DNA of 64,000 nucleotides from Sulfuricaulis limicola (GTDB lineage: Bacteria; Pseudomonadota; Gammaproteobacteria; Acidiferrobacterales; Sulfurifustaceae): contig NZ_AP014879.1 of NCBI RefSeq assembly GCF_002355735.1, forward strand, positions 992,001 through 1,056,000, in the 5' to 3' direction. Each line of letters opens with the position of its first letter. Within the stretch, counting starts at the first letter, position 1. The notes under the pieces are model-generated. The model made no database searches. It was not told the DNA's origin and was given only the letters and a program-made list of their open reading frames with translations. The position numbers and the translations under genes were made by a program. Positions 22,709 through 35,331 of this stretch are shown here, in pieces.

Positions 22709-23416
22709 ATGAAACAGAGAACGAATCTGCTGTGCCTGTTATTTATGTTTATGGCGCTCCCTGCCTGCGCCGCAGAATACCCGCCGACTTATTCGGCCGA
22801 AGCTATCGAAGCCTGGGTTATTGATGCCGAAACCAAGAAACCCATTGAAGGCGTAATTGTGACCGCCAACTGGGAGCTCGTTGGCGGCTTCGAGGGCAAC
22901 ACCCCCGTGGGGCAGATGAAAGTCCTGGAGACCGTCACTGACAAAGATGGCAAATTCACTTTCTCCGCTTGGGGCTCCGAACCACGGAAGAAAGGTTACT
23001 TACGCAACCGCGATCCGCAGTTTCTGCTGTTCAAACCCAGTTATGAATACAGACGCCTCGTAAATGAGGTTAGCTCCAAGATCAGCATGGCATCCCTGCG
23101 ACGTTCAGAGTGGAACGGGAAGACGATTGGGATGAAACTGTTCAAGGGGACTCAGGAAGAGTATGCAGAACATATCTATCGTCTGGGTAGCGACATGGAT
23201 TCCATGCTCGATTTTGCACGCGGCGATAAAGATTGCAATTGGAAGAAGACACCACGAATGCTTACAGCTCTCCATAAAATGAGCCTGCATTTCGAGGCCC
23301 AAGGAACAAAACTTAAAGGCTGGCGACTTGGTCAGCGCATTATTCGCACAGATGACATTCCACACAATGCCAAATGTGGTTCCGTAGAAGAGTTTTTCCG
23401 GAGCTATCTGCAATGA
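22709..23416 (+). CDS. Exported carboxypeptidase-regulatory-like protein
   Basis: 235 residues from ATG 22709 with AAGGAG upstream. Signal peptide (MKQRTN, hydrophobic core, cleavage after ACA). The N-terminal third looks like a transthyretin-type carboxypeptidase-regulatory fold (AWVIDAETKKPIEGVIVTA, TDKDGKFTFSAWG); the rest is helical with two lone Cys (residues near 173 and 226) and no known motif. Its stop overlaps the start of the next gene (ATGA), so the two are translated together. Role unknown, probably acts with its neighbours outside the inner membrane. Confidence 0.75.
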   Translation: MKQRTNLLCLLFMFMALPACAAEYPPTYSAEAIEAWVIDAETKKPIEGVIVTANWELVGGFEGNTPVGQMKVLETVTDKDGKFTFSAWGSEPRKKGYLRNRDPQFLLFKPSYEYRRLVNEVSSKISMASLRRSEWNGKTIGMKLFKGTQEEYAEHIYRLGSDMDSMLDFARGDKDCNWKKTPRMLTALHKMSLHFEAQGTKLKGWRLGQRIIRTDDIPHNAKCGSVEEFFRSYLQ

Positions 23417-26400
23417 TGCATGTACAGCATTTGGTCGCTGTTTTTGTTCTCACTGCCTTAACATCAGTATGTATGGCTTATGAGCGTAATACCCATAGAG
23501 AGATCTCGACGGCAGCGATAGAAAATTCTACTCTGCAAACAGACCCAGATATTCTCAAAAATTTGGGTCTGAAAGGCTCGGACAGATTTCGCAATTCCAA
23601 AAACAAAGAGAGGCCAATCTTTGGCCTTATCGAAGACGGTGCTGACTTCGAAGATGGTCTCACCGACGACTGTGAATCCCGCCCACGGCACCACTTCTAC
23701 GACCCCGCACATGATCAAGGATTGCGTTGGGGAATTGTTCGCGGCGAGAAATCCCCTGACTGGGCGCTGGAAGACAAGGGCGACATCAACGAACAGGAAT
23801 TCTCCTACAAAAATGCCCGGGGTTATTTCTACCAAGCGCTCACCTCCACAAAGGAAAACGATCGCAAGGCAAATTTCGGTCTTACTTTTCAAAGTCTTGG
23901 CCACGTCATCCACCACATTCAGGACATGGCCCAGCCGCAGCACGTACGCAACGATATCCATATCAAAGCGGGGGAAAACTGCTGGTACAAGAGCATCGCC
24001 AAGCTCATCGAGAACCCAAGCCTGTACGAACACTACACCGACGACAACCGCGGCAACCTCCCATTCATCGATCCCGACTACAATCAAGGTAAGTCGGTTG
24101 TCTTTACTGCCCCTCGGAAATTCTGGACTGATGATGGCAAAGGCTTAGCGGAATTTACCAATCGCAATTTCGTTTCCGTCGGCACGAACTACCAACTGTT
24201 CAACAATCTGCCCGTCGCGAATGCAATATATCCCCGGCCCGTACCGCTTCCCGGACAATCGATCCATATCCGCGATCTGCTCGCGGAGGAGGGGAGAACC
24301 ACTGACCTTGACGGCTACGTCGACTTCATCGCCAATACTGTTGCCGACCCCGTTGTCGGCGACAAGCCTAACTCCCGTTCCGCTTCCGTATCGATCTTCG
24401 ATCAGGACCTTAAGACCTACAACCAGACTATTACTTACAATACCGACCCCCTGGACCCAATCTTCAACGTTCAGGTGACTACCGATCGGCTTCTGACACT
24501 CAATCGGTTTAATTTCAAGAAAGCGCACGACTTCCTCATCCCCCGCGCTGTCGCCTACAGCGCGGGCCTCGTCGATTACTTCTTCCGCGGCAAGCTCGAA
24601 GCCGAGGACGTGACCTTCACTGACACCGGGATTTCGTTGCGAGTGAAGAATGCCATCGATCCCCAGAAGACCCCGGCGTGGGCAAATGAAGTCCTTTACT
24701 CCACAAGCTCCAATGGTTCGGCGGGCAGTCTTGTGGTCGCCTTCGACTATCAGGATAGCGCCGGCAAGACCCAGTATGGCGTCTCGAACACGGTTTCGGT
24801 ACGCGCCACCGATACTCTTGCTCCTGGTCAAGTTTCGACCGACGTTTATGATTTCACTCTGTCCGTTCCACCCGATGCTAAAAATGTGAACTACCGGCTT
24901 ATCTTTCGTGGCAAGCTTGGGCAAGAAGAAGATGCTGTGGCGGTGGGCGTTGCCGAACAGATTTCTGGCTTTCTCGTCACACCGAATTATTTGCCCACCG
25001 ATGGCATTACCGGTCAACGCGCAATCTTCAAGCAGGGTGGGCAATGGAGGTTGAGCGAAAAGAAGAATTTATTAGCGGGAAACATCGATTGGAAAGGTTG
25101 GTATGTCAATGGCAAGCCTACCAAAGTGCTTACTTGGCATGGACCAAAGGCACGCTATTTTCCAAATCCATCCGGATTCAGTGCCCCTTTTACTCCTAAC
25201 ATCTTTCAAAATGGAGAGCTCTTTTCAGTTGCTCCTCATGATGTCTTCGGAGCTGCGCTTATGAAAGATTCTGACGGAAAGGAATGGCTAATCGCAATCT
25301 GTATGCGTTTTGGAAGCGATATCGTTTATCGACGCCCTAATGTGAAAAGTGATTCCCCAGCTTTGTATGATCCGGTCACAGCAAAAGATGGATGGCAGGA
25401 AATCGGAAGGTTTTTACCTGATTTAGGCTGGAATCTGGAAATTCCCTGGTTTTTCAATGGTGATGGTACTGCAGCTCAAACTATGCGGAGAAAAACCAAA
25501 TACATATTCGATGACATTGGGAAGTTAATCAGTTCCCAATATGACGGGCTTGACAGGGCAAAAATAGAAATTGTTGGTAATTTAGCGGAACGTACCAATT
25601 TAGGAAATTATTCCGGCATTACAGTTACGAGTACGTGCGAACGGAAACCGTTTCCCTCGGAAAATTGCTTGTCATATGAGGTGTCACTTCAAGAGAACCA
25701 GTTACGCGACGGAAAATACATAATGGCTGTCGATTATCTGAATAATCAAGAAATTCTTGCTGTTTTGTCAGATACGCGTTCAGGTATGTATGATTATTCC
25801 GCTTCAAGAAATTACACCAAAGTCAACGATGTTTGTTCGGGCTTTGAACAGCATGTGACCTCATTAAACGTAGGGTCGGGTGCGTCAAGTCTGGCAATCG
25901 GATCCAGATCGTATGATTTGATAAAGAATGATGAAACATGGCTCTATAGAATTGATAGTGTGTCCAATTTCTATACCAGTTCTGCTACCGCAGAGGTTTC
26001 CTATTCGTCGGTGAATGAAAGAAATGAACTTCATCATGTGGACCTGCGTTATGGTTTATTGACAGGCAGAAGCGTAAAAGACAGTTTCATGACAGCTGGA
26101 AGCGCCAGCTCCAATAGATCCGATTTTGTTGTGCCGACAACCCTCAATACTGGGCGTGTGATTACACAGGAGGTAAAATCAAATATTGCGAGTCAACTCA
26201 TATTTGAGTCATCAGAAAACACATCGATGCCATTTGGAATAGGCGCATCACTATCAATTCATCTCGATTCCTGCGGCCCAGTCGGTTCGAAAGTCGAATA
26301 TCCAGATTACCGGACTATTATCGCCCCTTTGACGGGTTCATGGGTTGTGGATGGCGGTGAAAATTTGTTGATAACTCAAGAATATACAGGCCAGAATGGG

Positions 26401-26502
26401 GCAAAGCGGAATTTCAACTACTTAACAGGCGGCGATCTATATCAACTTATCCAAACAGCGCCAGAAGATGCGCGTTACTATCCATCTGGTGTTATTAAAT
26501 AG
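23413..26502 (+). CDS. Very large exported protein with a zinc phospholipase C/P1-nuclease-like head
   Basis: 1029 residues from ATG 23413, overlapping the previous stop. Signal peptide, then a head of about 350 residues with the His pattern of the zinc PLC/P1 nuclease fold: NTHREIS near residue 25-31 and GHVIHHIQDMAQPQHVRND near 160-178, the latter with the HxxxDxxQPxH logic that binds three zinc ions. A beta-rich middle (about 400-550) and a Ser/Thr/Asn-rich C-terminal half without recognised domains follow. The last 1.5 kb is visibly AT-richer than the head and flanking genes, suggesting a joined origin. Likely a secreted hydrolase on phospholipid or nucleic acid; substrate unproven. Confidence 0.72.
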   Translation: MMHVQHLVAVFVLTALTSVCMAYERNTHREISTAAIENSTLQTDPDILKNLGLKGSDRFRNSKNKERPIFGLIEDGADFEDGLTDDCESRPRHHFYDPAHDQGLRWGIVRGEKSPDWALEDKGDINEQEFSYKNARGYFYQALTSTKENDRKANFGLTFQSLGHVIHHIQDMAQPQHVRNDIHIKAGENCWYKSIAKLIENPSLYEHYTDDNRGNLPFIDPDYNQGKSVVFTAPRKFWTDDGKGLAEFTNRNFVSVGTNYQLFNNLPVANAIYPRPVPLPGQSIHIRDLLAEEGRTTDLDGYVDFIANTVADPVVGDKPNSRSASVSIFDQDLKTYNQTITYNTDPLDPIFNVQVTTDRLLTLNRFNFKKAHDFLIPRAVAYSAGLVDYFFRGKLEAEDVTFTDTGISLRVKNAIDPQKTPAWANEVLYSTSSNGSAGSLVVAFDYQDSAGKTQYGVSNTVSVRATDTLAPGQVSTDVYDFTLSVPPDAKNVNYRLIFRGKLGQEEDAVAVGVAEQISGFLVTPNYLPTDGITGQRAIFKQGGQWRLSEKKNLLAGNIDWKGWYVNGKPTKVLTWHGPKARYFPNPSGFSAPFTPNIFQNGELFSVAPHDVFGAALMKDSDGKEWLIAICMRFGSDIVYRRPNVKSDSPALYDPVTAKDGWQEIGRFLPDLGWNLEIPWFFNGDGTAAQTMRRKTKYIFDDIGKLISSQYDGLDRAKIEIVGNLAERTNLGNYSGITVTSTCERKPFPSENCLSYEVSLQENQLRDGKYIMAVDYLNNQEILAVLSDTRSGMYDYSASRNYTKVNDVCSGFEQHVTSLNVGSGASSLAIGSRSYDLIKNDETWLYRIDSVSNFYTSSATAEVSYSSVNERNELHHVDLRYGLLTGRSVKDSFMTAGSASSNRSDFVVPTTLNTGRVITQEVKSNIASQLIFESSENTSMPFGIGASLSIHLDSCGPVGSKVEYPDYRTIIAPLTGSWVVDGGENLLITQEYTGQNGAKRNFNYLTGGDLYQLIQTAPEDARYYPSGVIK

Positions 26503-26529
26503 AGTAACCATGAATTATCTGATCACGAT

Positions 26530-28530
26530 TCACGAAAACGTTTTTGCCACCACCCCCGCCGCGAGCAGCGCGGAGCCATAGGCGGCGTGCCCGGAGCGCG
26601 GCTTTTCCATTTTCACCCGCAGGATTTTTTCGCGGATGCGCGTCCAGGCCGGGTTCTGCGAGCCGCCGCCGGTGGTGAAGACCTTGCTGAGCGCCGGCGC
26701 GCCGAGTTTTCCCAGCAGTTGGTAGCCCTCGGCCTCGATGCGGGCGATGCCTTCCAGCATGCCCTGAAAGAAGGTGATGCTGTTGCCGGGCAGCGGTTCC
26801 AGTCGCGGCGCCATTTCCGGGTTGTTGATGGGGAAACGTTCGCCGATGTCCGGCAGCGGGTAGTAATCCAGGCCGGTGACGCTCTCCGGATCCAGCAACG
26901 GCGTCATCTCCCGCATCTGTTCAATCTTGAAATACTGCAACAGCACCGCGCCGCCGCTGTTGGAGGCGCCGCCGGCGAGCCAGTATCGGCCGAGGCGATG
27001 ACTGTAAACGCCATGTTCCAGCGAGAACACCGGCTTGTCCGACAGCAGTTTCAGCACCAGCGTTGTGCCCAGCGCCGTGACGCCGTGCCCCGACTCGGTG
27101 GGGCCGGCCGCGAGGAAGGATGCCACGCCGTCCGTGGTCCCGGCCAATACCTCCACGTCGGACGGCAGGCCAAAGGTTTTGGCGATGTCGGCGCTGAGGG
27201 TGCCGAGCGATTCGCCCGGCACGTGGACTTCCGGCAACAATGCGCTATCGAAGCCGAGCTTGTTCAGCCATTTGGGCCAGGCCATTTTTTCGGCGTCGAA
27301 ACCGAGCTTCAGACAATTGTTGTAATCGCTGTGACCGTACTGGCCGATCAGCTTGCCGCTGATCCAGTCGGCCTGGTGCAGCGCATGCTGGGCGCGTTTG
27401 TCGAGTTTCTTGTCGTGCATCCACATGAGCTTGGCGAGGCCGCTCCCGGCGCCCTGGGCGCCGGAAACGCCGCTCGTCAGCGAGGCGATGTGCTTTGCCT
27501 GTTGCACGGCGCGCCGGTCGTTGTACATGATGGCCGGCGTCACCGGGCTGCCCTTGGCGTCGCACAGCAGCAGGGTGCCGGAGGTGCCATCCACGGCGAT
27601 GGCCTGCACGCGTTGCGGATCGATTTGTTTCAGCAGGTTTTGCAGGCAGCCGGTGACCGCCTTCCACCACACGGTCGGGTCCTGGGTGACTTCATCCCCG
27701 TTGCGCGGCGGGGTGGGAATGGGCGCGCTCATCTCGCCATGGATCTTGCCGGTGGCGTCGACGGCGATGGCGCGGCAGCCGGTGGTGCCAAGATCGATAC
27801 CTATATAGAGTCCGTCCTTGCGCACCGGCGCCGGGGGCGGCGGCTCCGGCTCAACTGGCTCGGCGACGATTTCCTCCGGCTCCAGCTCTGGCTCGGGTTC
27901 CGGCGGCGGATCGTTGCGGCGCGAGCGCCGCAGCATGCGGAAGCGTTCGCTGGCCGACGGCTCGGGTTCCGGCGCTGGCGCCGGGTTGCGGTTTTTCGGC
28001 GCGGGCGCGGGCGGGATGACCGGCTCGGTCAGTTTCACCGGGTTGCGGGGCTTCGCCGCGGGCATGGGCTTGGCGGCAGGGGCCTGCGCGGGAGCCGTGC
28101 CCGGGACCTGTTTCGCCGGCAGCTCCTGGACCTCGCGCGGCAGATCGGCCGGCGGTGGCGGTGGCGCTTGCCAGCCGCTCTGGCGGTGCACGACCTCGAC
28201 GGTCGTATAGAGCCCGCCGCGCACGTAGAATTTAGCCCGCAGCCGCAGGTAGCGCGGGTGCGTGACCGCCACCAGATCGTTCAGGATGCGGTTGGTCACG
28301 TCCTCGTGGAAATGGCCCTCGTTGCGGTAGGACCAGATATAAAGTTTCAGCGACTTCAATTCCACGCACAGCCGGTCCGGGACGTACTCCAGGGTCAGGG
28401 TGGCGAAGTCCGGCTGGCCGGTCTTGGGACACAGACAGGTGAACTCCGGACATTCGATCTCAATGATATAATCCCGGTCCAGACGCGGATTGGGGAAGGT
28501 ATCCAGATTCTTGCTGGGCTGGCTCGGCAT
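26530..28530 (-). CDS. QueF (preQ0 reductase)-FGGY sugar kinase fusion
   Basis: 666 residues in one frame. Residues 1-121 are a complete type I QueF: Cys34 and Asp41 in [16 protein letters not shown] at 57-64 and His75-Glu76 in GHFHED, at the spacing of the B. subtilis catalytic residues (Cys55, Asp62, His96, Glu97). Residues 122-238 are a Pro/Glu/Ala-rich linker. Residues 239-666 are a complete short FGGY kinase ([16 protein letters not shown] phosphate loop, DGTSGTLL, catalytic Asp in [12 protein letters not shown] site [11 protein letters not shown]), most like cyanobacterial/plant D-ribulose kinases of about 425 residues. QueF reduces 7-cyano-7-deazaguanine to preQ1 with NADPH. I know of no such fusion, and the link between the two activities is unexplained. 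Divergent from smc. Confidence 0.9.
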
Positions 28531-28610
28531 GGACTGGCTGTAGTTAGTAAGGAATCCCTGTAAAATTGTAGCTTAATTCAGGCCGGCGGACAGGACACAC
28601 ACGGGACACG

Positions 28611-31600
28611 ATGCGACTTAAAACAATCAAGCTTTCCGGCTTCAAATCCTTCGTCGAACCCATCATTATTCCCATCAACGGCAACCTGATCGGCATTGTC
28701 GGGCCGAACGGCTGCGGCAAGTCCAATATTATAGACGCCGTGCGCTGGGTCATGGGCGAGATGTCGGCCAAGAACCTGCGCGGCGATTCCATGGCCGACG
28801 TCATTTTCAACGGCTCCAATTCGCGCAAGCCGGTGGCGCAGGCCTCGGTCGAGCTCATTTTCGACAACAGCGAAGGCCGTGCCGGCGGCGAGTACGCCAA
28901 GTATGCCGAGATTTCCATCCGGCGCGAGGCCGGGCGTGACGGCCAGTCCGATTATTTCCTCAACAAGACCAAGTGCCGGCGCAAGGACATCACCGACATC
29001 TTCCTCGGCACCGGCCTGGGGCCGCGCGCCTACTCGATCATCGAGCAGGGCATGGTCACGCGCATCATTGAGGCCAAGCCGGAAGACCTGCGCGGCTTCC
29101 TGGAAGAGGCCGCGGGCGTTTCCAAATACAAGGAACGCCGCCGCGAGACCGAGAGCCGCATCAAGCACACACGCGAGAACCTGACGCGCGTGGATGACAT
29201 CCGCAAGGAACTCGATACCCAGCTCTCCAAGCTGCACCGGCAATCGCGCGCCGCGGCGCGCTACAAGGAACTGAAGCAGGAAGAGCGCCTGACGCGCGCG
29301 CAATTGCTGGTGTTGCGCTGGCAGGAACTCGACGGGCGCGTGCAGAGCCAGGACATGTTGTTGTCGCAGCAGCAGACGGCGCTGGACGCCGTGCTGGCAG
29401 AGCAGCGCGGCATCGAAGCCGAGATCGAAAAAATCCGTGCCCAGCAGACCGAGACGGTGGACCAGTTCAACGCGGTGCAGGCCGAGTTCTATTCCGTCGG
29501 CGCCGAGATTTCGCGCCTGGAGCAGGCCATCCAGCACGCGCGCGAGACGCGCGAAAACCAGGAGCGCGAGCAGGAGCAGGTCAACCGCGCCTGGAGCGAG
29601 GCCAGCCAGCATCTGCAGTCGGATGTGGCGCGCATGCAAGAACTGCAGCGTCGGCTGGAAGAATTGACGCCGCAGCTGGAAGAACTGACCCGCGCGCGCG
29701 ACGCCGCCGCGGAGAGCCGCGCCCAGGCCGAGCGCGCCATGCAGGACTGGCAAAACGAGTGGGAATCTTTCAGCGAAGCGGCGGCCGAACCGGCCCGGGT
29801 GCGCGAGGTCCAGACCGCGCGCATGCGCCAGCTGGAAGGTCATATTGAACAGCTGCGCCAACGCCAGGCGCGCCTCGAACAGGAGGCCGCGACCATCGGC
29901 GCGGAGCTGGAAAAAGAGCCGGCCAACGCCCTGGCCACGCAGGTGGCGGAACTGGACGAATCCTGCGAGGCGCGGGAACGCTCGATCGGCGAAATCGAGG
30001 CGCGTTTGCGCGAGGCGCGCGACCGGCGCGACGAGCTGGATGACGAGTTGTCCGAGGTGCGCGGCCAGAAACAGAGTGGCGAGGCGCGTCTGGCCTCGTT
30101 GCGTGAATTGCAGGCGGCGGCGCAGGGCGAGAGCGACGCGGCTTTGGGTGAGTGGCTGCACGGGCAGGGTCTCGACAAGGCGCCGCGCCTGGCGCGCGTG
30201 CTCAAGGTCGAATCCGGCTGGGAAAAGGCCGTGGAGCGGGTGCTCGGTGTCAATCTCGGCGCCGTGTGCGTGCCGAAGATGGAATCGGTCGCGTCCGCGG
30301 CCGCCGGCTACGACCAGTCGCAGGTCACGTTCATCGAACAGGGCACGCCGGCCGCGCGCGGGTCCACGCCGCATCCGGCGCTGCTCGACAAGATCCAGGG
30401 CGACATCAATCTCGCGCCGCTGCTCGATGGCATTTACGTCGCCGAATCGCTGGAACAGGCGCTGTCCTGGCGCGGCGGTCTCACGGCGCGCGAATCCTTC
30501 GTCACGCGCGACGGCGCCTGGGTCGGCCGCAACTGGCTGAGCCTGGGAAGCGAGAAAGGCGCGCGCGCCGGCTGGCTGCTGCGCGAGCGTGAAATCGAAA
30601 CGCTGCAATCGGATCTGGGCGAATGGCACAACAAGCTCGCCAACCTGCAGGCGGCGATCGCCGAGCTGGATACGCAGTTGCAGAATCTCGAGGACGAGCG
30701 CGACGAGCTCACCCGCGATCTCAGCGAGAACAATCGCAATCGCGCGCAGTTGCGCGAGCAGCTTGGACACAAGCAGGCGCGGCTGTCGCAGCTCGAATCG
30801 CGCCGCGCGCAGATCGAGCGCGAGCAGAATGAAATCGGCGAACAGCTGGGCCGCGACCAGGCAGAGATTTCCGCCGCGGGCGATTTGCTGCGCCAGGCTG
30901 AGGCCACCGGCGGCGAACACGAACAGCGGCGCGCGCAGTTGCAGCAGAACCGCCAGACCCTGCTGGACGCGGTAGAACAGGCGCGCACGCAGGAATCCGC
31001 GGCGCGCGACAGCGTGCATCGCCTGGAAATCGAGCGCGAGACGCAACAGACCGCCTTCGAGGCCACGCGCGCCAGCCATGCGCGTCTCGAGGGGCAGTTG
31101 CAGCAGCTGATCTCGCGGCGCGAGCAGCTGTCGCTGGCGCTTTCGGGCGAACAGGACCCGACGCCGGGATACCGCCAGCATCTGGACGAATTCCTGCAGA
31201 AGCGCCTGGGCATCGAGGAGCGCTTGAACGCCGCGCGCCAGGCGGTGACCGATCTCGAAACCCAGCTGCGCGAACAGGAACAGGCGCGGACGCGGGAAGA
31301 ACGCAAGACCACCGAAATCCGCGAGAAACACGAAAGCGAGCGCGTCGTGCTGCAGGAACTGACGGTGCGCCGCGAAACCGTCGCCGACCAGTTGCGCGAA
31401 TCCGGTTTCGAGGTCGAGGCCGTGCGCGCGGAGCTGCCGCCCGAGGCCAACGAAACCGAATGGGCCTCACGCCTGGAGCAGGTGACCGCGCGCATCGAGC
31501 GCCTGGGGCCGATCAACCTGGTGGCGATCGAGGAATTCGAGGAGGCCAACACGCGCAAGACCTATCTCGACAAGCAGTGCGAGGACCTGTCGCAGGCGCT

Positions 31601-32116
31601 GGCCACGCTGGAAGAGGCAATCCGCAAGATCGACCGCGAGACGCGCACGCGCTTCAAGGAGACCTTCGACCAGGTCAACGAATATTTCCAGAGCTTCTTC
31701 CCGCAGCTTTTCGGCGGCGGCAGCGCGCATCTCGAAATGACCGACAACGACCTGCTCGAAACCGGCGTGTCCGTCATGGCGCGCCCGCCGGGCAAGCGCA
31801 ACAGCACCATCCACCTGCTCTCGGGCGGCGAGAAGGCGCTCACCGCGGTGGCGCTGGTGTTCGCCATCTTCCAGCTCAACCCGGCGCCGTTCTGCCTGCT
31901 GGACGAGGTGGACGCGCCGCTGGACGACGCCAACGTGATCCGTTATTGCGAAACCCTGAAGACCCTGTCGGACAAGACCCAGCTGGTTTACATCACGCAT
32001 AACAAGATCAGCATGGAGATGGCCGACATCCTGATCGGTGTCACCATGTCCGAGCCGGGCGTGTCGCGCCTGGTGGCGGTGGACGTGGATCAGGCCATGG
32101 AGATGGTCGCGCAGTA

Positions 32117-32117
<1 letters not shown>
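28611..32117 (+). CDS. smc: Chromosome segregation protein SMC
   Basis: 1168 residues, full length. Head: Walker A GPNGCGKSNIIDAVRW (about 32-47); coiled coils about 170-480 and 670-990; hinge about 510-660 (KAPRLARVLKVESGWEKAVE); C-terminal head with LSGGEKALTAVALVFAIF and Walker B FCLLDEVDAPLDD. ATP-driven DNA loop extruder that works with ScpA and ScpB, encoded at 44984-46467. Its stop overlaps the zipA start by one base. Confidence 0.97.

Positions 32118-35331
<3,214 letters not shown>

What the first reader, a model, noticed from the sequence alone, without database searches (positions are those of the whole stretch)
26530..28530. One gene fuses the queuosine enzyme QueF to an FGGY sugar kinase
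A single 666-codon frame encodes a complete type I QueF (Cys34, Asp41, His75, Glu76 at catalytic spacing), a 117-residue Pro/Glu-rich linker and a complete FGGY kinase of D-ribulose-kinase type (phosphate loop, catalytic Asp, ATP motif). Both halves look functional, and no frameshift or stop separates them. QueF is normally a stand-alone enzyme of about 120-160 residues. I know of no reported link between preQ0 reduction and sugar phosphorylation. It may be a bifunctional enzyme that salvages or marks a queuosine-related sugar, or simple co-regulation of two activities. Why the two are joined is open.
Basis: partly seen in the sequence, partly recalled or inferred. Interest (0 to 1): 0.88.

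Follow-up and report, generated by a model that had tools for sequence, protein, structure and literature searches.

The report
Queuosine enzyme fused to sugar kinase
In a group of carbon-fixing bacteria two neighbouring genes, one for a tRNA-modification enzyme and one for a sugar kinase that tends to accompany the carbon-fixing enzyme RuBisCO, have merged into one gene; the merger is real and inherited, but it most likely records who the neighbours were rather than a shared pathway.

Summary
In detail: one intact 666-codon gene (window 26530-28530, minus) of Sulfuricaulis limicola encodes a complete type I QueF, a disordered 116-residue linker and a complete FGGY kinase. It is not a sequencing error: 29 of 60 genomes searched (own included) carry the fusion, which maps to one change on the tree, and both halves are under strong purifying selection. 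In 25 more of the 60 the genes are separate but adjacent. In 275 genomes of the class the kinase occurs in 109; in 93 of the 94 whose QueF row was printed, queF lies directly upstream. The surrounding block (zipA, smc, queF, kinase) is conserved, and either gene can be missing alone. Kinase presence follows RuBisCO (103 of 109 kinase genomes, 33 of 166 others), likewise in cyanobacteria, where 0 of 80 loci had QueF within about 4 kb. The nearest solved relatives are SePSK, whose ATPase is stimulated by D-ribulose, and chloroplast AtXK-1. Best reading: the kinase returns stray ketopentose (D-ribulose) to the Calvin cycle, and the two were joined because they were neighbours. A queuosine-linked sugar is not supported. 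Kinase genomes without RuBisCO among other Pseudomonadota (4 of 11 in that survey) limit the Calvin-cycle reading.

The parts
26530..28530 (-). fusion gene, 666 codons: type I QueF - linker - FGGY kinase (P0001)
   Evidence: same open frame in 29 of 60 genomes
28168..28530 (-). QueF (preQ1 synthase) part, residues 1-121; C34, D41, H75, E76 conserved
   Evidence: TIGR03139 169 bits against cut-off 86.9; residues identical in 29 of 29; dN/dS 0.05-0.19 in five within-genus comparisons
27820..28167 (-). Pro-rich linker, residues 122-237, predicted disordered
   Evidence: pLDDT under 50 for residues 129-131 and 135-224; dN/dS 0.27-0.57
27916..27945 (-). conserved basic motif [10 protein letters not shown], residues 196-205, inside the linker; function unknown
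   Evidence: pattern found in 23 of 29 fused proteins; related RFRQLGDRR in the tail of the unfused QueF of G039
26533..27819 (-). FGGY kinase part, residues 238-666, SePSK/AtXK-1 type
   Evidence: phmmer to 5htn E 2.9e-95; Foldseek top eight all SePSK/AtXK-1 entries; D246 29/29, D467 28/29, N626 and W629 29/29
28611..32117 (+). smc, divergent neighbour; part of the conserved block
   Evidence: TIGR02168 1115 bits, cut-off 567; smc-queF-kinase order in 37 of 40 order loci and 35 of 39 class kinase loci
32117..33322 (+). zipA-like gene, next in the block
   Evidence: TIGR02205 E 3.1e-28 but below its cut-off, 99.6 against 119.65

Best explanation
SHOWN: the gene is an inherited in-frame fusion of two genes that stand side by side (queF, then a SePSK-type FGGY kinase) in many Gammaproteobacteria (GTDB sense), inside a conserved block next to smc. 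SHOWN: in this class the kinase's presence follows RuBisCO. INFERRED: the product is one polypeptide with two independent activities: QueF reduces preQ0 to preQ1 for queuosine, and the kinase phosphorylates a free ketopentose, most likely D-ribulose to D-ribulose 5-phosphate, returning to the Calvin cycle carbon that unspecific phosphatases release. INFERRED: the QueF C-terminus first lengthened towards a close or overlapping kinase start, and then the stop was lost; the proline-rich linker keeps the two folded parts apart. Since type I QueF is a decameric ring (recalled), the kinases would hang from a QueF ring on flexible tethers.
For: Fusion in 29 of 60 genomes, separate adjacent genes in 25, neither in 6. 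Fused rows need one change on a 48-row tree, branch support 84/82, one change in 83% of 200 bootstrap trees. Separate sister lineages show longer QueF tails (G026, G039) and a TGATG stop-start overlap (G039). dN/dS QueF 0.05-0.19, kinase 0.11-0.19, linker 0.27-0.57. Class survey of 275 genomes: kinase in 109, queF upstream in 93 of 94 with a printed QueF row; RuBisCO (E<1e-50) in 103 of 109 against 33 of 166, Fisher p 9e-38; within type-I-QueF genomes 98/4/26/55, p 8e-22; one genome per family, 149 families: 57/3/16/73, p 2.5e-22. Cyanobacterial phylum, 146 genomes: both 62, kinase only 1, RuBisCO only 3, neither 80. Either gene can be absent alone: smc-queF without kinase in 16 of 20 chosen kinase-less loci; smc-kinase without queF in G106 and G202. 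SePSK is stimulated by D-ribulose and needs D8, T11, D221 (PMC4880283, parts 1-2 of 5 read); D8 and D221 equivalents conserved. The host is an autotroph with two RuBisCOs (PMC5024460, passages).
Against: Wider Pseudomonadota survey (249 genomes): kinase in 11, RuBisCO E<1e-50 in 7 of these (two only at 1e-62 and 1e-72, perhaps RuBisCO-like proteins) and absent in 4 (G561, G625, G633, G639); 68 RuBisCO genomes lack the kinase; p only 0.02. In the class 33 RuBisCO genomes lack the kinase and 6 kinase genomes lack RuBisCO. A D-ribulose-contacting residue of SePSK, Ser222, is Gly in 28 of 29 fused proteins; T11 is Ser in 5 and Pro in 1. The NCBIfam xylulokinase model is far below its cut-off, and no NCBIfam kinase model fits. 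The evidence on SePSK is ATP hydrolysis, not an identified product. The cyanobacterial result may rest on few evolutionary events.
Confidence: 0.68

Rival explanations
1. Functional coupling: the kinase acts on something tied to 7-deazaguanine or queuosine metabolism, or the fusion links tRNA modification to carbon state, and selection joined them for that reason.
For: The pair is close (HMM-edge gap 36-907 nt in 93 genomes), found across many families, and fused in one clade; a queuosine gene, gluQRS, lies in the same block in 14 of 101 loci examined. Within RuBisCO genomes the kinase is somewhat commoner with type I QueF: 98 of 124 against 5 of 12, p 0.009.
Against: smc, which has no known tie to queuosine, is as conserved a neighbour of queF as the kinase. 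81 of 183 type-I-QueF genomes lack the kinase. 0 of 80 cyanobacterial loci have QueF within the flank, at most 4 kb, and 0 of 9 loci of other Pseudomonadota within 6 kb. QueF chemistry uses and yields no sugar (recalled).
Confidence: 0.12
2. The kinase is an ordinary catabolic pentulose kinase for sugars taken up from outside, unrelated to the Calvin cycle.
For: Alphaproteobacterial-type loci put the kinase beside a class II aldolase-domain protein and a HAD hydrolase, once with a sugar-binding regulator; 4 of 11 kinase genomes in the phylum survey lack RuBisCO.
Against: Strong RuBisCO association in the window's class and in cyanobacteria; the conserved block around the fused and unfused gammaproteobacterial kinases shows no recurring sugar uptake or pentose gene among the clusters found.
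Confidence: 0.13
3. The linker is cut in the cell, so the fused gene is only a translational arrangement and the halves act apart.
For: 116-residue disordered, fast-evolving linker; no sign of an internal start with a ribosome site before the kinase, so cutting would be the way to free it (by eye).
Against: The open frame is kept in 29 of 29 fused genes examined, which cutting alone would not require; proteolysis cannot be tested here.
Confidence: 0.15
4. Sequencing or assembly artefact.
For: None found.
Against: Same fused frame in 29 of 60 genomes, with linkers of different length and sequence.
Confidence: 0.01

Closest known systems
Type I QueF (preQ1 synthase, TIGR03139; Bacillus subtilis type)
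   Same: Full-length match well above the curated cut-off; C34, D41, H75, E76 conserved
   Different: Carries a 116-residue tail and a second enzyme; unfused class members mostly end soon after a '...PVxLP' tail
SePSK of Synechococcus elongatus (PDB 5htn, 5hv7) and AtXK-1 of Arabidopsis chloroplasts (5htr)
   Same: About 40% identity; top structural matches; D8, D221, N380, W383 equivalents conserved
   Different: Ser222 is Gly in 28 of 29; no QueF within the flank (at most 4 kb) in 80 of 80 cyanobacterial loci; SePSK itself is not fused
Xylulokinase XylB (TIGR01312) and other named FGGY kinases
   Same: Same fold and domain order
   Different: 170 bits against a cut-off of 380; other FGGY models also far below their cut-offs
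Fusions of operon neighbours ('Rosetta stone' proteins)
   Same: Separate adjacent genes in relatives, one fused clade
   Different: No shared pathway is evident; the link appears positional

Membership tests
type I QueF | score above the curated equivalog cut-off (TIGR03139) | tested here: met
   169.1 against 86.9
type I QueF | active-site Cys, Asp, His, Glu at the recalled spacing | tested here: met
   C34, D41, H75, E76 in 29 of 29
type I QueF | a queuosine pathway in the same genome | tested here: inconclusive
   Tgt present in own genome and 57 of 60; queA, queC, queD, queE, queG not searched
type I QueF | NADPH-dependent reduction of preQ0 | not testable with these tools
   needs an assay
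SePSK/AtXK-1 group of FGGY kinases | closest solved relatives by sequence and by fold | tested here: met
SePSK/AtXK-1 group of FGGY kinases | D8, T11, D221 needed for SePSK activity (PMC4880283) | tested here: met
   window gene has D246, T249, D467; across fused proteins 29, 23 and 28 of 29
SePSK/AtXK-1 group of FGGY kinases | all D-ribulose contacts of SePSK kept (S72, D221, S222) | tested here: not met
   S317 and D467 kept, but S222 is G468; this lowers the claim of the same substrate, not of the group
SePSK/AtXK-1 group of FGGY kinases | phosphorylates D-ribulose | not testable with these tools
   needs an assay
XylB xylulokinase | score above the curated cut-off | tested here: not met
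   170 against 380

The most novel reading that the evidence does not exclude
QueF and the ribulose kinase do belong together: in autotrophic Gammaproteobacteria a QueF ring carries kinases on tethers, with the conserved RFRMLRR motif as a docking site, so that preQ1 supply (hence decoding of NAU/NAC codons through queuosine) is tied to Calvin-cycle ketopentose state.
Probability: 0.1. Interest if true: 0.85.

Novelty: new variant of a known kind. Interest (0 to 1): 0.5.

Why it matters
The fusion led to a wider regularity: SePSK-type kinases, whose physiological role (chloroplast AtXK-1 included) was called unknown in the paper that solved their structures (PMC4880283), follow RuBisCO in two bacterial groups. 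That makes a Calvin-cycle salvage role directly testable in cyanobacteria and plants. The fusion itself warns against reading a fusion as proof of a shared pathway: here the conserved neighbourhood accounts for it at least as well. I found no report of the fusion or of a queF-kinase pairing in the held library (searches; open-licence PMC papers only).

Tried and rejected
Artefact by lost stop or frameshift: rejected, the frame recurs in 28 other genomes. Ordinary xylulokinase: rejected on score. Internal translation start freeing the kinase: only ATG199 and GTG236 in codons 190-245, neither with a purine-rich site upstream by eye. Sigma-70-type promoter within 26450-28700: none found, which says little. 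A first FastTree tree (73 rows) left unfused rows inside the fused clade; the more careful 48-row tree, for which I chose 10 of the outgroup loci, gave one change. I report the second, but support is moderate (84/82) and fission in some lineages is not excluded.

Papers: PMC4880283 parts 1 and 2 of 5 read; PMC5024460 and PMC3245297 passages only; the rest search listings. The search of FGGY literature (PMC3245297) showed no mention of cyanobacteria, fusion or Calvin by those words.

Rows dropped before counts: one search left out 5 of 48 loci whose kinase my pattern missed; one search left out L066, L068, L099; one search kept one genome per family (149 of 275); one search treats RuBisCO hits weaker than 1e-50 as absent (10 of 146). 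In one search, 15 of 109 kinase genomes had no printed QueF row and were not judged. The 39 class kinase loci and 20 kinase-less loci fetched were my choice, not a random draw; one of the former (G162) was known to lack an adjacent queF.

Full report
Identity. The genome holding the window is 2,864,672 bases in one contig. That equals the published genome of Sulfuricaulis limicola HA5, and relative G011 (3,958,814 bases) equals Sulfurifustis variabilis skN76; both are described as autotrophs with two RuBisCOs (PMC5024460, passages). RuBisCO is found twice in G000.

The gene. Window 26530-28530, minus strand, is one 666-codon frame. It matches Pfam QueF, FGGY_N and FGGY_C above cut-offs and the NCBIfam preQ1 synthase equivalog; it is the only QueF match over threshold in its genome. 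By sequence the kinase is nearest SePSK and AtXK-1, and the AlphaFold model (mean pLDDT 79.8, linker 135-224 below 50) has SePSK and AtXK-1 entries as its first eight Foldseek matches.

Conservation. Among 60 genomes including its own, QueF and kinase lie in one open frame in 29, in separate adjacent frames in 25, and in 6 one or both are missing or only weakly matched (recounted). Catalytic residues are kept: QueF C34, D41, H75, E76 in 29 of 29; kinase D246 in 29, D467 in 28, N626 and W629 in 29. The exception, G030 (L050), has lost D467 and the T249 equivalent. Pairwise dN/dS against five congeners is 0.05-0.19 (QueF), 0.27-0.57 (linker) and 0.11-0.19 (kinase).

How it arose. On a 48-row tree of both domains the fused rows need a single change (84/82; one change in 83% of bootstrap trees). 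A quicker tree had unfused rows inside, so fission is not excluded. The nearest unfused lineages look like steps: QueF tails in most sampled class members end about 27 residues after the V-R-G-G motif; G026 and G039 have long tails, that of G039 with a motif like RFRML; G039 and G040 have a TGATG stop-start overlap. In 23 of 29 fused proteins the linker carries RFRML-type basic sequence; I do not know what it does.

A conserved neighbourhood. In 275 genomes of the class, kinase relatives (E up to 1e-60) occur in 109; of the 94 with a printed QueF row, 93 have queF just upstream on the same strand. In 35 of 39 fetched class kinase loci the order is smc (divergent), queF, kinase; 20 of 39 have a CysZ/EI24 gene next (name). 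In 20 chosen loci with queF and no kinase, smc is still beside queF in 16 and EI24 in 11. In G106 and G202 the kinase stands next to smc and queF is absent from the locus. The block is thus conserved whether or not its members share a pathway, and queF and kinase can be absent one without the other.

What the kinase follows. RuBisCO large subunit (E<1e-50) is in 103 of 109 kinase genomes and 33 of 166 others. One genome per family gives 57 with both, 3 kinase only, 16 RuBisCO only, 73 neither. Among type-I-QueF genomes alone the figures are 98, 4, 26, 55. In the cyanobacterial phylum: 62, 1, 3, 80, and 0 of 80 named cyanobacterial loci have QueF within the flank, at most 4 kb. Against this, in 249 genomes of the whole phylum Pseudomonadota only 11 have the kinase, 4 of them without RuBisCO and two with weak RuBisCO matches, and 68 RuBisCO genomes lack it. 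Kinase loci there that belong to other classes (9 fetched) have no queF within 6 kb, and several carry an aldolase-domain protein and a HAD hydrolase beside it. The kinase family is therefore not confined to autotrophs; the association is strong in the window's class and in cyanobacteria.

Mechanism. SePSK's ATPase rises with D-ribulose and depends on D8, T11 and D221 (PMC4880283). I infer that the kinase rephosphorylates free D-ribulose lost from Calvin-cycle intermediates. One SePSK contact, Ser222, is Gly here (28 of 29), so the substrate is likely but not certain. A HAD phosphatase gene lies within the fetched flank in 15 of 39 class kinase loci and 1 of 20 kinase-less loci; that it is CbbY-like is my recollection, and only general HAD-IA models pass their cut-offs. 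For QueF I infer the standard reaction; Tgt is present, other queuosine genes were not searched.

Verdict. Real, conserved, new as an architecture so far as my searches of the held library go, and best explained by joining of neighbours with separate jobs. The more interesting outcome is the testable Calvin-cycle role for an orphan kinase family.

Noticed in passing
window 27916-27945 (residues 196-205): Conserved basic motif [10 protein letters not shown] in an otherwise fast-evolving linker; pattern in 23 of 29 fused proteins, absent in the four f7 rows, L044 and L061. A similar RFRQLGDRR ends the unfused QueF of G039.
   Followed up: partly
L050 2-1840: The fused gene of G030 keeps its frame and QueF residues but has lost the kinase's catalytic Asp (Thr instead) and the Thr of the phosphate loop (Pro); perhaps a dead kinase half.
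   Followed up: no
L058 5484-6302: G038 also encodes a type II QueF (TIGR03138 379 bits, cut-off 293) besides the fused type I; the genome is listed with 5% contamination.
   Followed up: partly
L108 180-1145 and 13 other loci: dksA and gluQRS (glutamyl-queuosine tRNA synthetase; the L108 copy is above its cut-off) lie in the same smc-queF block in 14 of 101 loci, so a second queuosine gene is nearby.
   Followed up: partly
L221, L223-L230: SePSK-type kinases of other Pseudomonadota lie, in several loci, beside a class II aldolase-domain protein and a HAD hydrolase, a possible sugar or polyol pathway.
   Followed up: partly
L042 543-3516: G015 has queF and kinase in different, overlapping frames (107 bases with the longest start): natural overlap, fission by frameshift, or assembly error.
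   Followed up: no
window 23374-26502: A 1042-aa ORF convergent with the fusion gene matches no NCBIfam model.
   Followed up: no
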